Origin: Ignavibacteriota bacterium | GTDB taxonomy: Bacteria; Bacteroidota; Ignavibacteria; UBA10030; UBA6906 | Reading direction: 5' to 3' | Assembly (NCBI GenBank): GCA_016218065.1 | Contig: JACRFA010000220.1 | Location: 1 to 39,730 of the forward strand | DNA length: 39,730 bases | Shown here: positions 2,824-23,416 of the stretch, one piece after another | How the letters are laid out: every line of letters begins with the position of its first letter | Position numbering within the stretch: position 1 is the first letter of the stretch | Made by a program: the position numbers and the translations under genes | The notes under the pieces: model-generated | The model's input: the letters and a program-made list of their open reading frames with translations, nothing else | Told to the model about the DNA's origin: nothing | Databases searched by the model: none

Positions 2824-5403
2824 TCACCACAAAGCAAACGCTGCCCACGCGTGCAACGCGGCGTACTCCTTGTTCTTGATCATCTCAAGCAACGCGTTTC
2901 TGTACGCAGCTTCCGCGGAATTTCCGGCAAGCAGATTCGCATAAAACAATCCGACAAAAAACTTCTTCGCTTTCCGTGTCGGCACGAACGTGTTCATCAC
3001 GACGTCGCCGGTTCCATTCATGCGCACGATCCGCGGGATGATCGCGTGAGGCGGCCGGGCGCTCAGGTTCGACACCACGAGAACGGGAAACGGCGAGATG
3101 CCAAAGAATTCTCCCAGCCGCTCGTAGCGCAGCGTCGCATATTCTTTTCCGCCCGACAACACCACATACGATTGAGGAAGGTCAGAAGGAAACACCCGCA
3201 ACTCGACTGCCATATGCAACACGTCTCCGTGTACCTGCCTCAACGTGCGAACGGACGCATCTCTGCCGAAGTACAGGCGAGCATCGCGCGAGAGCGTCCG
3301 CGTGTCGCTCAGTTCGTACTCGACGTCCCACGAAGTAGAGCCGGCGTTGCCGAATCCGATAACGGACGGCGGTGTATGAAGCGGCGTTCCCTTCAACGCA
3401 AGCGTCGAAACATCCGGCAGATAGCGAACGGAAAGCTGCTCGATGACGTACGATGCGCGAGTCTCTTGCTTCTGCAGCGCGTGCACCGGAATCAACGGCA
3501 GATCGACAGGCAGCGCGACGTAGAGTCTCGTCGCTCCCTGAAGTTCTCGCTCAATTGGTTGCAGCAGCATGCCGTACAGTTGCGCGGACAGTACACGCGT
3601 CCTGCGATCAAGTTGTGTCTGGGTAGATGGAGGAAGCTCGTGCGTGCTTTGCGCGAGAAGCGTGTTCAGCTCGTTCGCGGCTGCAATGAATTTGGATTTC
3701 TCCACGGCTGCGACCCGCACTGCGGATGATTGGTTCGTGACAAGGAACGCGTAGAGAGAGTTCTCCGTCGGGATATAGTCAACCAGCGCGGAGCCTGCCG
3801 GCAGGAATTTCGAAACGTCGCGAAGAGTGAGTTGCTGAGGCAAGACAGCGGCGTTGTATCGCGCGTTCGTTGCAGCAATCGAGTCGCCAAGTTCGCGCAA
3901 CCGCTGCGAAGTGCGGGCAAGAACGTTCTTCAGTTCCGCCGCAAGCGCTTGCGACTCCGAGCGCAACGCGGCGGCCACGGCAAGTTGCCGCTCAGTCCCG
4001 ATGTACTGACGGCGCGCATCGGCAAATGTCTCGAATGCAGAATTGAGTCGTTCATCTTTTGTGTTGATTGTCAGAGCCGGGAACGATTTCATCCAAATCA
4101 TCAACGTCTTCTGCTCGGCGTAGCGGAATGCTTCATCGTTCATGCCGAGCTGGAGCAGCAGATCAATCAGATCGTCGTAGTAGGATGTTCCATTGTTGCC
4201 GGCACGCTCGCAATTGACGTACAGATCATTCTCGTCGCGGGAGGCAAAGCTGCTATCGAAGTTGGCAACCGCGTTGCGAAAGTATTCCAGCGCCTCCGAC
4301 AATCGAGTGTTCTGCATCGCATTTTGTCCCAGACACGAGTGTGCATACGCGTTTGCCGCGGGCAACCCGACGTGAGCAAGAAGCTCGGCGCCGGCTTCGT
4401 ACTCCCGTGTCGCGTCGATTCTTCTTTCAGCGCGGTCGCAATGCCCGAGTTGCAGGAGCGCGTACGCTTCGTTCAATTTATTTTGGGTGCGGATTGCTGA
4501 TCGCAGCGCGAAGTTGAAATACGTTCTCGCCTGCGAAAATTTCTTCCGGGTGAGGTAGATGTTCCCGACTCTCAGCAAGATTTCTTCGCGTTCGCGAGCA
4601 ACGCCTTTCGCTGTGTCGGCCAAACGGATTGCGTCGGCGAAAGACCGGAATGCCGCAGTCTGGTTTCCCATCCGATCCTGAGCGATGGCGGCATGATTGA
4701 GCGCGATGATAATGGCAAGCGAGTTGCCCGCACGTCTGGCGAGAGACAACGAAGCGACGAAGTCCTGAAGTGCAGCGGAGAAATCATTGTACGCCAGCGA
4801 TGATCTTCCGCGCTCAAGGTACGCCCGGGATTGATTGAGGAGATCGTTGCGTCGTTGAGATGAGGCCAATTGCTCATTCAGCGTCCGACGTTCAAACTCA
4901 ACATCGCCGAGCGCATGCACGACCGGAATCAGCGCCCACTTCAGCGCGTTCGCGCTAACCGTATCGTTGCGCGCCTGTTCCACTCTCAGCGCTTCAAGTA
5001 ATGTCGTCGAAGCAGCGGGAAAGTTCTCGCAAAGCGTTTGCGCGTGAGCGATGGCAAGCGTCGCGGCGCGTATGCCGTGATTATCCGCGATGCCCCGATA
5101 GGCTTCCCGTGCGGCGCGGTACAACTCGAGCGCGCTGTCGAACCGCGCGGCCGCCGCGTAGTTTTCTCCGAGCAGAAGCAAGCCTTCCGCCCGGCGCTCA
5201 CGCTCGCCGAGTACGTCATCGAGCGCGATGCTTTCAAGGAGGAGCCGTCGGGTGGCGAGATGATCGCCGCGAGCGAGCGCGCCCTTCGCCTTGTCGAACA
5301 CGAGTGTTGCACGCTGATGCATAAGTTCATTGTCGTCGCCGCACCCAATCAGAACAGACACGGCGAACAGAACGGCAAGGAATTGAGAGAAGCGGTTTAG
5401 CAT
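2824..5403 (-). CDS. TPR-repeat lipoprotein with C-terminal CHAT-like domain
   Basis: Lipobox LIGC near the N-terminus; many TPR helices; C-terminal ALVDYIPTENSLYAFLV..., LPLIPVHALQ..., VIEQLSVRYLPDVSTL... matches CHAT architecture. Confidence 0.75.
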   Translation of the reverse strand: MLNRFSQFLAVLFAVSVLIGCGDDNELMHQRATLVFDKAKGALARGDHLATRRLLLESIALDDVLGERERRAEGLLLLGENYAAAARFDSALELYRAAREAYRGIADNHGIRAATLAIAHAQTLCENFPAASTTLLEALRVEQARNDTVSANALKWALIPVVHALGDVEFERRTLNEQLASSQRRNDLLNQSRAYLERGRSSLAYNDFSAALQDFVASLSLARRAGNSLAIIIALNHAAIAQDRMGNQTAAFRSFADAIRLADTAKGVAREREEILLRVGNIYLTRKKFSQARTYFNFALRSAIRTQNKLNEAYALLQLGHCDRAERRIDATREYEAGAELLAHVGLPAANAYAHSCLGQNAMQNTRLSEALEYFRNAVANFDSSFASRDENDLYVNCERAGNNGTSYYDDLIDLLLQLGMNDEAFRYAEQKTLMIWMKSFPALTINTKDERLNSAFETFADARRQYIGTERQLAVAAALRSESQALAAELKNVLARTSQRLRELGDSIAATNARYNAAVLPQQLTLRDVSKFLPAGSALVDYIPTENSLYAFLVTNQSSAVRVAAVEKSKFIAAANELNTLLAQSTHELPPSTQTQLDRRTRVLSAQLYGMLLQPIERELQGATRLYVALPVDLPLIPVHALQKQETRASYVIEQLSVRYLPDVSTLALKGTPLHTPPSVIGFGNAGSTSWDVEYELSDTRTLSRDARLYFGRDASVRTLRQVHGDVLHMAVELRVFPSDLPQSYVVLSGGKEYATLRYERLGEFFGISPFPVLVVSNLSARPPHAIIPRIVRMNGTGDVVMNTFVPTRKAKKFFVGLFYANLLAGNSAEAAYRNALLEMIKNKEYAALHAWAAFALW

Positions 5404-11054: not shown

Positions 11055-11990
11055 TTGAACTTTCTCGCGTTCTTTACATCAGCTGATACGACGCACGTTG
11101 CTGCGGAAAGCGCCCAGCATGCCGCCGCGGCCGGCGAGCACCACGGCGAGATGTCCGTCTCCGAAATGTTCAAGCATCTGTTCGAGCATGTGCAGGATTC
11201 ACGCGAGCTCGAGTTGCCGTTCATTGGTCATGTTCCTCTGCCGCAATTCGCCCCGATAGAGATTGGCGGCGTCTCACTCGATCTCTCCATCACCAAGCAT
11301 GTCGTCTTCCTTTGGTTTTCCGCCGCTCTCTTGATTTTGCTGATGGTGCTCGCTGCGCGGGCAAACAGGAAGAACCGCGTCCCCACAGGGTGGGGCAACC
11401 TCGTCGAAGTGTTCGTGAAGTTTATCCGCGATGAAATCGTCGTGCCGAATATGGGCGAGGCCGGACTGAAGTACATGCCGTATCTCCTCACGACGTTTTT
11501 CTATATTCTCATTATGAATCTGTTTGGACTCGTCCCCTGGGGTTCGTCGGCGACGGGCAACGTGAGCGTCACGGCCGGACTGGCGATTGTCGCGTTCATC
11601 ATGATTCAGTTCTCGGCCATTCGCGCACAAGGCCTCGGGCACTATCTCGCGCATCTGACGGGCGGCGTGCCCGTGTTTCTCTGGCCCATCATGATTCCCA
11701 TCGAAATTCTCGGACTGTTTACCAAACCCTTCGCACTCTGCATTCGTCTCTTCGCCAACATGACGGGCGGCCATCTGGTGATCGTCTCGCTCTTCGGGCT
11801 GATCTTTCTCTTCAAGTCGTACCTGATCGGCGCGGTGACGACGAGCTTTGTTGTCGCAATCAACTTTCTGGAATTGTTCGTCGCATTTTTGCAGGCCTAC
11901 GTCTTCACGATGCTCACCTCCATTTTTATGGGATTGGGCATTCAGGCGGGACACGCGCCACATGATGAACATGCAGAACATTCTCATTGA
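11055..11990 (+). CDS. atpB: F0F1 ATP synthase subunit a
   Basis: FTKPFALCIRLFANMTGGHLVIVSLFGLIF and ELFVAFLQAYVFTMLTSIFMGLG; TTG start. Confidence 0.95.
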   Translation: MNFLAFFTSADTTHVAAESAQHAAAAGEHHGEMSVSEMFKHLFEHVQDSRELELPFIGHVPLPQFAPIEIGGVSLDLSITKHVVFLWFSAALLILLMVLAARANRKNRVPTGWGNLVEVFVKFIRDEIVVPNMGEAGLKYMPYLLTTFFYILIMNLFGLVPWGSSATGNVSVTAGLAIVAFIMIQFSAIRAQGLGHYLAHLTGGVPVFLWPIMIPIEILGLFTKPFALCIRLFANMTGGHLVIVSLFGLIFLFKSYLIGAVTTSFVVAINFLELFVAFLQAYVFTMLTSIFMGLGIQAGHAPHDEHAEHSH

Positions 11991-12040
11991 ACTCGAATCT
12001 ATCGAAACCACTCACTATCTAAACATCTAGGAGAAACACC

Positions 12041-12271
12041 ATGGAACACCTTGGTTGGGCATATCTGGCAGCAGGAATCGGAGCAGCTCTTACAATCATC
12101 GGCGCCGGTATGGGTATCGGCAAGCTTGCCGCCGCGGCAATGGAAGCAAGCGGTCGCCAGCCGGAAGCAGCCGGAGCAATCCGAACATCGATGATCATTG
12201 CTGCAGCCCTTATTGAAGGTGCAACGTTCTTTTCACTCGTGATCTGCATTCTTCTCGCACTGAAGTCATAA
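12041..12271 (+). CDS. atpE: F0F1 ATP synthase subunit c
   Basis: 76 aa: GIGAALTIIGAGMGIGKLAAAAMEASGRQPEAAGAIRTSMIIAAALIEGATFFSLVICILLAL. Confidence 0.95.
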   Translation: MEHLGWAYLAAGIGAALTIIGAGMGIGKLAAAAMEASGRQPEAAGAIRTSMIIAAALIEGATFFSLVICILLALKS

Positions 12272-12289
12272 TCCTTTAAAGGATTCATC

Positions 12290-12775
12290 ATGTTAGAAAT
12301 CAATCCGGGATTAATATTCTGGACGATCATCACGTTCATTGCCGTGCTGGCGATTCTCAAGAAGGTCGCGTGGAAGCCGCTGTTGACCGCATTAACGTCG
12401 CGTGAAGAGCAGATTCGGACAGCGTTGCAGCAGGCTGAACACGCGCAGACGGAAGCGATGAAGCTCCTCGAAGAAAACAAGCGACACCTTGCACAGGCTG
12501 ATGCGCATGCCCAGCAGGCGATGCGCGAAGGCCGCGAGATGGGCGAGCGACTGCGCGTCGAGATTGTCGAGAAGGCCAACGCGAATGCGCGGGCAATGGT
12601 CGAGCAAGCGAAGGATGAGATTCGCCGCGAGCGCGATGCGGCGCTGACTCAACTGCGCGGCGAAGTGGCCGACCTGGCTGTGATCGCCGCCGGCAAAATC
12701 ATCGACGCGAATCTCGACGTCAACAAGCATCGCCAGCTGGTGGACAACGTGATCAACGAAATCAGACCGAGCTGA
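12290..12775 (+). CDS. atpF: F0F1 ATP synthase subunit b
   Basis: MLEINPGLIFWTIITFIAVLAILKKVAWKPLLTAL followed by a long coiled coil. Confidence 0.95.
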   Translation: MLEINPGLIFWTIITFIAVLAILKKVAWKPLLTALTSREEQIRTALQQAEHAQTEAMKLLEENKRHLAQADAHAQQAMREGREMGERLRVEIVEKANANARAMVEQAKDEIRRERDAALTQLRGEVADLAVIAAGKIIDANLDVNKHRQLVDNVINEIRPS

Positions 12776-12777
12776 CG

Positions 12778-13230
12778 ATGAAGAACACGCGTCTTGCACG
12801 CCGATACGCACAGGCGGTGATGATTGCCGCCGAAGCCTCGAAAGCGATTGACTCAGTCGCAAACGATCTTGATGTGATCAAGCGGGCGTACGAATCGTCG
12901 CGCGATCTCCGGCGCTTTACCGAAAGCCCCATCATTTCGGTCGAGAAGAAGCGCCTGGTTTTTCGCGAACTGTTCTCGCGGCAGGTCACGCCCTTGACGA
13001 TGTCGTTTCTGGAGCTGATCACCGAGAAGCAACGTGAGTCCTCTCTTCTCGAAATCATTGAACAGTATCACGCTCTTCGCGACGCTGCGTACGGCATCAT
13101 CAACATCGATGTCGCGTCGGCAGTGGAGATTTCATCTGACCAAGAAAAAAATCTCTCGCAGAAGCTTGAGCAACACACCAGAAAGAAAGTCCGCGTCCGC
13201 TTTTCACTCGACAAGGCGCTGAAGGGCTGA
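12778..13230 (+). CDS. atpH: F0F1 ATP synthase subunit delta, interrupted by an in-frame TGA (continues in frame to TAG at 13324-13326)
   Basis: RLARRYAQAVMIAAE...RDLRRFTESPIISVEKKR... is AtpH; ORF ends at ALKG-TGA (13228-13230), and the same frame continues LVVKIGDTVLDSSIKRQLELMREQFAHGHLN, the canonical delta C-terminus. Confidence 0.9.
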   Translation: MKNTRLARRYAQAVMIAAEASKAIDSVANDLDVIKRAYESSRDLRRFTESPIISVEKKRLVFRELFSRQVTPLTMSFLELITEKQRESSLLEIIEQYHALRDAAYGIINIDVASAVEISSDQEKNLSQKLEQHTRKKVRVRFSLDKALKG

Positions 13231-13368
13231 CTCGTGGTGAAGATCGGCGACACGGTGTTGGATTCGAGCATCAAGCGGCAACTGGAGTTGATGCGCGAGC
13301 AATTCGCCCACGGGCATTTGAATTAGGGAAACTCTGGATTTCATCATAGAATTACGAAGGCAAACAGC

Positions 13369-14924
<1,556 letters not shown>

Positions 14925-14925
<1 letters not shown>

Positions 14926-15806
14926 TGGCAACGTTACGCGAATTGCGCGGGCGCATTTCGGGCGTCAAGAAAACTCAGAAGATCACGAAGGCGATGAAGA
15001 TGGTCGCCGCAGCGAAACTACGCCGCGCGCAGGCCAACATGATTCAGGCCCGCCCGTACGCGGCAAAGATCAAAGCGCTGCTGCAGCATCTTTCTCTCGG
15101 CACGGACATGACGCAGAATTCGTTGTTCCAGGTCCGACCGGTCAACGCCGTTGCGGTTGTCGTCGTCACAGCCGATCGCGGCTTCTGTGGCGCGTTCAAT
15201 AACAATCTTGTGAAAGCAGCCGAAAAACATATTCTCACCAGCCACAAACCGCTGCTTGACCAAGGCAAGGTGAAAATCTTCGCCGTCGGGAAGAAGGGTT
15301 TTGACTACTTCAACAAGCGCGGCTACTCTCTCGCGGGCAAGTACATCGGCGTGTATAACAACCTCATCTTCAGCGAAGCGCAGACGATCGTGCGCGATGT
15401 GTTGAGCGGCTACGAGAAGGGCGAGTACGATCAGGTCGAGATCATTTCCAATGAGTTCAAGAGCGTCGCGCAATCGAAAATATCGCTCGAACAGTTTCTG
15501 CCGATTGCGCCGCTTGCCTTCGACTCAACGCAGCACAAATCCGTTGACTACATCTACGAGCCATCTCCCGCAGACATTCTGAAGGCGCTCGTGCCGAAGC
15601 ATTTGAATTTTGTCGTGTGGAAAGTTTTGCTGGAGAGCAACGCATCGGAGCAAGGCGCCCGCATGGCGGCAATGGAGAATGCAACGACAAACGCAAACGA
15701 GCTGATCAATACACTTCAGCTTTCGTACAACAAAGCCCGCCAGGCCTCGATTACGAGTGAGCTGCTTGAGATTGTTGGAGGAGCGGAAGCGTTGCAAAAG
15801 GGGTAG
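14925..15806 (+). CDS. atpG: F0F1 ATP synthase subunit gamma
   Basis: MATLRELRGRISGVKKTQKITKAMKMVAAAKLRRAQ; C-terminal YNKARQASITSELLEIVGGAEAL. Confidence 0.96.
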
Positions 15807-22110: not shown

Positions 22111-22892
22111 GAGTGAGCATCCTTGTGGCTCCATCGAACCACAACCTGATCTTCGAAACGTAAGTCGATGTACTGCAGCATATCGACGCCTTCGCGCACG
22201 ACAGCGGAATTCCAGAATCCTTCGAACTTCACGAGCTTCGCGCCGATGTGCTCGCGACCCAGCACGACGGGAATGCCGAATTCAGAAGTGTAGAACATGA
22301 ACTCCCTGTTTGCATCGAGCCGCAGTTCGGAAATATTTTTGTACACATCATCTCCAACCTCGCGGGCAACGGAAAGAATGCGCAACGCCTCACGCACCGT
22401 CGCATCGGTCGTTTGCTTTCCGGCGATGAGAGTCGCCGTTGCCATCGATCCATTCAGGACCGGGAGATCGAAGATGTACTGCGATCGCGCCGGAGGAAGA
22501 ACAACGCCTTCGGCGTCGAGGTAATACAGCTTGTCCAGCACGATGGCCGCCACGGGCACGCGTTCATCAATGGAGATGCGGACGCGATTGGGGATGTCGC
22601 GATGCACCGCCGCTGATTTCACATACTCCATGTTCAAGACTCGCTGCTCGATTGCATAGAGATCGAGTTCGAACAGCCGGGCGTTGGGACTGACTTTCGC
22701 CAGCGCCAGAATTTCTTTCGATGACGAGATGCGATTGCCTTCGACAAGGACTTCGATTGCGCGACACTCCTCCTTCCACGCATTGACGTACACCGCTAAT
22801 GCCAGCAGCGTGAGAAGCAGCAGCGCCATCAGAAGAAAGCTCTTCTTCGCGCTCGGGCGTTTCGGCGTGTCAGGCTGTCGCCATTCGTCCAT
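22107..22892 (-). CDS. ftsQ: Cell division protein FtsQ/DivIB (POTRA)
   Basis: Single TM then IEVLVEGNRISSSKEILALAKVSPNARLFELDLYAIEQRVLNMEYVKSAAVHRDIPNRVRISIDERVPVA. Confidence 0.9.
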   Translation of the reverse strand: MDEWRQPDTPKRPSAKKSFLLMALLLLTLLALAVYVNAWKEECRAIEVLVEGNRISSSKEILALAKVSPNARLFELDLYAIEQRVLNMEYVKSAAVHRDIPNRVRISIDERVPVAAIVLDKLYYLDAEGVVLPPARSQYIFDLPVLNGSMATATLIAGKQTTDATVREALRILSVAREVGDDVYKNISELRLDANREFMFYTSEFGIPVVLGREHIGAKLVKFEGFWNSAVVREGVDMLQYIDLRFEDQVVVRWSHKDAHS

Positions 22893-23416
22893 TACGCAAC
22901 CCGCGCAAGTTGTTCTTGATCAAAGCCGACGAAATCGAAGTTCATCTCAAGATCCACTCCGCACCTATCGCGAATAATCCTCTGTGCATGCGTGACGAGC
23001 GCGAAGATGTCCGCCGCTGTTGCTCCCCGCATGTTCGCGACCGTGCCGCCGATGATCTCAGCGCCGCCCCAGAGTATGCCGTTCACATCCGCCGCGTGGA
23101 TGAGGGCGTCGATGGATTGGTTCTCGGGCGGCTTGAACATTGCTACAGCTTTTGCGCCGGTGAAACGACGATTCGTGAAGCAGATCGCTGCCCCGCGAAT
23201 CCCTCTGTCGCTCACAAGCGTCGTTGACTGAAGCGTGACGTGCGGAATGCGATGCCGGGAAAAGTACGCTCGAAGTTCCGCGGCTTCATTCTCATTCGAC
23301 ACTTCGAAGAGATAGTCAGCCGGGCCTCCGACGCCGAGCGCGCAGTAGGGCGCCGCCGGCTCATCGATTTTTATCGTGCAGCGAAAGTGCTTTCGTATTT
23401 CCGTGAGCGACAACAT
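22892..23416 (-). CDS. Truncated MurB-like protein (UDP-N-acetylenolpyruvoylglucosamine reductase fold, central part missing)
   Basis: N-part CALGVGGPADYLFEV...LVSDRGIRGAAI resembles MurB FAD domain; C-part MFKPPENQSIDALIHAADVNG..GGAEIIGGTVANMRGATAADIFALV...VDLEMNFDFVG resembles MurB C-terminus; 174 aa versus ~300 aa expected. Confidence 0.7.
   Translation of the reverse strand: MLSLTEIRKHFRCTIKIDEPAAPYCALGVGGPADYLFEVSNENEAAELRAYFSRHRIPHVTLQSTTLVSDRGIRGAAICFTNRRFTGAKAVAMFKPPENQSIDALIHAADVNGILWGGAEIIGGTVANMRGATAADIFALVTHAQRIIRDRCGVDLEMNFDFVGFDQEQLARVA

What the first reader, a model, noticed from the sequence alone, without database searches (positions are those of the whole stretch)
12778..13326. 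In-frame TGA removes the conserved C-terminus of AtpH
Seen directly: the ORF ends ...KVRVRFSLDKALKG-TGA at 13228-13230, and the same frame continues LVVKIGDTVLDSSIKRQLELMREQFAHGHLN to TAG at 13324-13326. The expected family pattern here is roughly P.LIGGfvv.iGD...D.S....L..L, so TGA sits where a Gly codon is expected; GGA to TGA is one substitution. With the codon read through the protein is 182 aa, close to normal AtpH length. TGA is followed by C, a context known to favour leaky readthrough. Options: sequencing or assembly error, recent nonsense mutation in an essential gene, or programmed readthrough that yields two delta forms.
Basis: partly seen in the sequence, partly recalled or inferred. 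Interest (0 to 1): 0.78.

Follow-up and report, generated by a model that had tools for sequence, protein, structure and literature searches.

The report
Isolated stop codon in atpH
One draft bacterial genome has a single-letter stop codon near the end of its only ATP-synthase delta gene, where every relative examined has glycine; it is most likely a sequencing or assembly error or a fresh mutation, not a hidden recoding system.

Summary
The window's atpH (12778-13230) stops at TGA 13228-13230 after 150 codons, and the same frame continues for 31 family-like residues to TAG 13324-13326. The interrupted position is glycine in all 76 homologous loci examined, and GGA in both same-genus genomes, so one substitution explains it. 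The tail has hardly changed in protein sequence against those genomes, although silent sites are near saturation. The stop is therefore very recent, not real, or fully suppressed.

Nothing supports programmed readthrough. The stop is absent from all relatives. No tRNA-Sec passes its cut-off, and release factor 2 is intact. There is no unusual mRNA fold downstream. TGA ends about half of the coding-like ORFs sampled in this genome, a fifth of them followed by C.

The 319-contig draft holds at least two more isolated in-frame stops, both TAG, in unrelated genes (M1 peptidase, membrane-fusion protein). I saw none in 0.86 Mb of the nearest relative, but that difference is not significant. There is no second delta gene.

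Verdict: an isolated nonsense substitution in one draft assembly. A consensus error is somewhat more likely than a real recent mutation, and only raw reads can separate the two. Low interest.

The parts
12778..13230 (+). atpH (F-type ATP synthase delta/OSCP subunit), 150-codon open part ending at the in-frame TGA
   Evidence: Pfam OSCP positions 1-146/172, 119.5 bits
13228..13230 (+). in-frame TGA at a Gly position conserved in all homologues examined (GGA in both same-genus genomes)
   Evidence: 76/76 loci have Gly; own genome is the only one of 20 family matches with a stop inside
13231..13326 (+). same-frame continuation, 31 codons plus TAG: the conserved C-terminus of delta
   Evidence: Pfam match extends to 171/172 with the tail; pN 0.03-0.07 against pS 0.61-0.95 versus the same-genus genomes
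13221..13239 (+). GAAGGG followed after 7 nt by GTG GTG: Shine-Dalgarno-like sequence that could by chance allow restart just after the TGA; the GTGs are absent from the same-genus genomes
   Evidence: read directly; relatives
11055..12775 (+). upstream ATP synthase genes atpB (a), atpE (c), atpF (b), all open
   Evidence: ORFs; named from family knowledge
13369..15806 (+). downstream atpA (alpha) and atpG (gamma), open
   Evidence: alpha matched by PF00006 without internal stop

Best explanation
A single-nucleotide change (GGA to TGA at 13228) in one draft genome interrupts an otherwise normal, single-copy atpH. The most likely origin is an error of the assembled consensus (wrong base, or a minority variant taken into the consensus) in a 319-contig, probably metagenome-assembled, genome. 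On this reading the organism makes ordinary full-length delta and there is no special mechanism. Shown here: the substitution, its uniqueness, the intact tail, the single gene copy and the other isolated stops. Inferred: that the base is wrong rather than a real recent mutation.
For: Gly in 76/76 loci and GGA in both same-genus genomes. The tail kept its protein sequence while silent sites diverged: versus G001 2 nonsynonymous against 18 synonymous differences, pN 0.03, pS 0.95. It is the only OSCP gene in the genome, with no alternative F-type alpha or beta, so loss should be costly. The same draft contains other isolated in-frame stops: TAG in an M1 peptidase between HELAHQ and FGD and TAG in a membrane-fusion protein. 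None was seen in the nearest relative's sample (0.86 Mb, 451 tested ends). The genome has 319 contigs against 50-70 in its same-genus relatives.
Against: No reads or second assembly of this species could be inspected. Three stops in 597 tested ORF ends against 0 in 451 is not a significant excess (Fisher p = 0.26), and the other two genes look dispensable, so real recent pseudogenes would look the same. No frameshifts were found in about 65 genes compared, so the consensus is not grossly poor.
Confidence: 0.5

Rival explanations
1. A real, recent nonsense mutation in the sequenced strain or in part of the population. Delta lacks the last 32 residues, which help bind the b dimer, so the F1-Fo link is weak or lost and the strain lives with little or no coupled ATP synthase, or the allele is a minor one.
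For: Fits the sequence equally well. The intact tail shows that the change is young. Other isolated stops in the draft may be real pseudogenes. ATP synthase is not strictly essential in all bacteria (own knowledge). The b-delta contact through C-terminal regions is cited in the review PMC6131620.
Against: Single-copy gene. The rest of the operon is open and conserved. Fixation of a null allele here would be costly.
Confidence: 0.38
2. Functional or programmed readthrough of UGA, giving 150-aa and 182-aa delta forms.
For: The tail is under constraint up to the divergence from the same-genus genomes. UGA is the leakiest stop in E. coli reporters (PMC11126739).
Against: The stop is not conserved in any relative. 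The downstream mRNA fold is average (z = 0.04). UGA-C is an ordinary ending in this genome (24 of 121). RF2 is intact and no tRNA-Sec passes its cut-off. Misreading of UGA in E. coli inserts mostly Trp and some Cys, not Gly (PMC11126739). The other isolated stops in the draft are TAG, so no single suppressor would explain them.
Confidence: 0.05
3. Split delta: translation ends at TGA and restarts at GTG 13234 behind GAAGGG, so that a 150-aa body and a C-terminal peptide of about 30 aa assemble together.
For: GAAGGG lies 7 nt before GTG GTG. The tail is intact.
Against: The GTG codons are not in the same-genus genomes and look like chance synonymous choices. The break lies within a folded domain. 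No precedent was found here.
Confidence: 0.03

Closest known systems
F-type ATP synthase subunit delta / OSCP (Pfam PF00213; solved relatives include E. coli 5t4o_L and Bacillus PS3 6n2y_I)
   Same: Whole-length match, operon place between atpF and atpA, conserved Gly and GD..D.S C-terminal motif. By equal-length match ranges the stop falls at E. coli residue 150 (query 56-173 against chain 55-172).
   Different: An in-frame TGA stands at the conserved Gly in this one genome.
Premature stop codons from consensus error or recent pseudogenisation in draft genomes
   Same: Single substitution, absent from relatives, intact downstream sequence, other isolated stops in the same assembly.
   Different: Lies in a single-copy, normally important gene, which makes error somewhat more likely than a real loss.
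Stop-codon readthrough of UGA in bacteria (E. coli reporters and proteome, PMC11126739)
   Same: UGA followed by a long open continuation.
   Different: No conservation of the stop, no downstream structure, no decoding tRNA found, and mostly Trp/Cys inserted in the known cases.

Membership tests
ATP synthase delta / OSCP (PF00213) | Sequence match over the whole model | tested here: met
   1-171/172 at 150.7 bits with X at the stop; the 150-aa form alone covers 1-146 at 119.5 bits
ATP synthase delta / OSCP (PF00213) | Intact C-terminal part with the conserved Gly and GD..D.S motif in one open frame | tested here: not met
   TGA replaces the Gly codon; the motif lies behind the stop
ATP synthase delta / OSCP (PF00213) | Place in the atp operon between atpF and atpA | tested here: met
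   ORF order
Programmed stop-codon readthrough | Stop codon conserved between relatives | tested here: not met
   sense Gly codon in 76/76 loci; no stop inside in 19 family matches other than the own genome
Programmed readthrough | Stimulatory structure just 3' of the stop | tested here: not met
   13228-13330 folds no better than shuffles, z = 0.04
Programmed readthrough | Full-length product present in cells | not testable with these tools
   needs proteomics
UGA recoding (Sec) or reassignment | tRNA-Sec present, or RF2 lost and UGA rarely used as a stop | tested here: not met
   no tRNA-Sec over cut-off; RF2 intact at 528 bits; 121 of 246 coding-like ORFs end in TGA
Consensus error of the assembly | Reads disagree with the consensus base | not testable with these tools
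   no reads or second assembly available

The most novel reading that the evidence does not exclude
A genuine in-frame UGA in an ATP synthase delta gene that the cell tolerates, by efficient readthrough or by making delta in two pieces through restart at GTG 13234.
Probability: 0.05. Interest if true: 0.6.

Novelty: not a real feature. Interest (0 to 1): 0.12.

Why it matters
If real and tolerated, it would show a bacterium coupling F1 to Fo with a truncated or split delta, which would bear on what the delta C-terminus does. As it stands it mainly warns that isolated stops in a draft genome should not be read as recoding before reads are checked.

Tried and rejected
Second atpH copy: none. Alternative F-type ATPase that would make the gene dispensable: no further F-type alpha or beta; the other PF00006 matches read as two Rho-like proteins and a partial match at the end of a contig beside FliJ-like and MgtE-N-like flagellar genes. 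UGA reassignment or Sec: rejected. Downstream readthrough structure: none. General gene decay of the operon: other atp genes are open. Frameshifts elsewhere as a sign of a bad assembly: one apparent case in a non-coding shadow frame, none real in about 65 genes. Class-wide look at OSCP genes: the rows printed, the best-scoring ones only, show no internal stop; the list was cut before the lower rows, so it is not a complete rate. A literature search for rates of false stops in metagenome assemblies gave nothing useful; an exact search for the E. coli delta Gly150 mutant found no paper in the held library.

Full report
What is there. The window is contig 159 of a 319-contig, 5.17-Mb draft genome (97.5% complete). 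It lies in a family of uncultured Bacteroidota: a family member (G015) has a contig of exactly the same length, 55,516 bases, as the record JAUQWO010000008.1, 'MAG: Bacteroidota bacterium isolate BIN5'. That the own genome is also a metagenome assembly is inferred. The genes around 10.4-15.8 kb are an ATP synthase operon: AtpI-like, a, c, b, delta, alpha, gamma (names from family knowledge). The delta ORF runs 12778-13230 and ends at TGA; the frame stays open for 31 more codons to TAG 13324-13326.

Is it more than chance? Yes. With X at the stop, Pfam OSCP covers positions 1-171 of 172 at 150.7 bits, against 1-146 at 119.5 bits for the 150-aa form. Aligned with homologues from the genus, the family and many phyla, the interrupted position is Gly in 76 of 76 loci; two of these, L011 and L022, are probably the same genome. 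Both same-genus genomes have GGA. One substitution explains the stop. By the ungapped-length match to E. coli delta (query 56-173, chain 55-172) this is E. coli residue 150.

How old is it? Between the own gene and G001, the 29 compared tail codons hold 18 synonymous and 2 nonsynonymous differences (pS 0.95, pN 0.03); codons 1-150 have pS 0.73, pN 0.20. Against G002 the tail has pS 0.61, pN 0.07. Only one tail residue differs from both relatives. Free decay over any large part of this divergence would have left many more changes. So the stop is young, or not real, or fully suppressed.

Is it recoding? The stop is not shared: own is the only one of 20 family genomes with a match that has a stop inside. 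RF2 is present and intact. No tRNA-Sec reaches its cut-off. In a sample of this genome TGA ends 121 of 246 coding-like ORFs, 24 of them followed by C, so TGA-C is an everyday terminator here. The RNA after the stop folds no better than shuffles (z = 0.04). In E. coli, misread UGA yields mostly Trp and some Cys (PMC11126739). A chance restart site (GAAGGG, 7 nt, GTG) exists after the stop, but its GTG is missing from the relatives.

How clean is this draft? I looked at 1.09 Mb of the own genome and 0.86 Mb of the nearest relative G001 for ORF ends whose in-frame continuation looks coding, then judged the candidates by eye. Most are simply neighbouring genes in the same frame. Besides atpH, two others in the own genome are clearly inside genes: a TAG between HELAHQ and FGD of an M1 peptidase (Pfam M1 domain runs across it), and a TAG in a membrane-fusion protein...GDAAHL*PVEITLPN... 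(Pfam HlyD-type domains run across it). I saw none in G001. Three of 597 against 0 of 451 is not significant (p = 0.26). The M1 case was found with the looser filter, so the counts are approximate. A direct comparison of about 65 genes between own and same-genus DNA showed atpH as the only gene body interrupted, and no true frameshift. So isolated stops exist in this draft at a low rate, in unrelated genes and with a different stop codon. That is the pattern of random point errors or fresh pseudogenes, not of a decoding rule.

Consequence if real. There is only one OSCP gene in the genome and one F-type alpha and beta. The C-terminal regions of delta and b bind each other, and delta is needed to join the b dimer to the rest of the complex (review PMC6131620). 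The lost 32 residues are the end of that region, so a real stop should weaken or abolish coupling. This is inference from known ATP synthases; nothing was tested on this protein.

Verdict. Consensus error (about 0.5) and real recent nonsense (about 0.38) cannot be told apart without reads. Programmed readthrough and split delta are unlikely (together under 0.1). The case is ordinary unless reads prove the T.

Noticed in passing
L108 (own genome contig C1), minus strand, 15069-15071: In-frame TAG inside an M1 peptidase, between HELAHQ and FGD; the Pfam M1 domain match runs across it. From own knowledge this position is normally Trp.
   Followed up: partly
L221 (own genome contig C280), plus strand, 4199-4201: In-frame TAG inside an HlyD/RND-type membrane-fusion protein; the Pfam domain matches run across it.
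   Followed up: partly
window 22892-23416, minus strand: A short MurB-like gene (174 aa) next to murC matches only positions 24-98 of MurB_C. A similar short gene sits after murC in G001, and the own genome has a separate MurB-family gene on contig C6 in a 368-aa open frame. It looks like a reduced MurB paralogue kept in the genus.
   Followed up: partly
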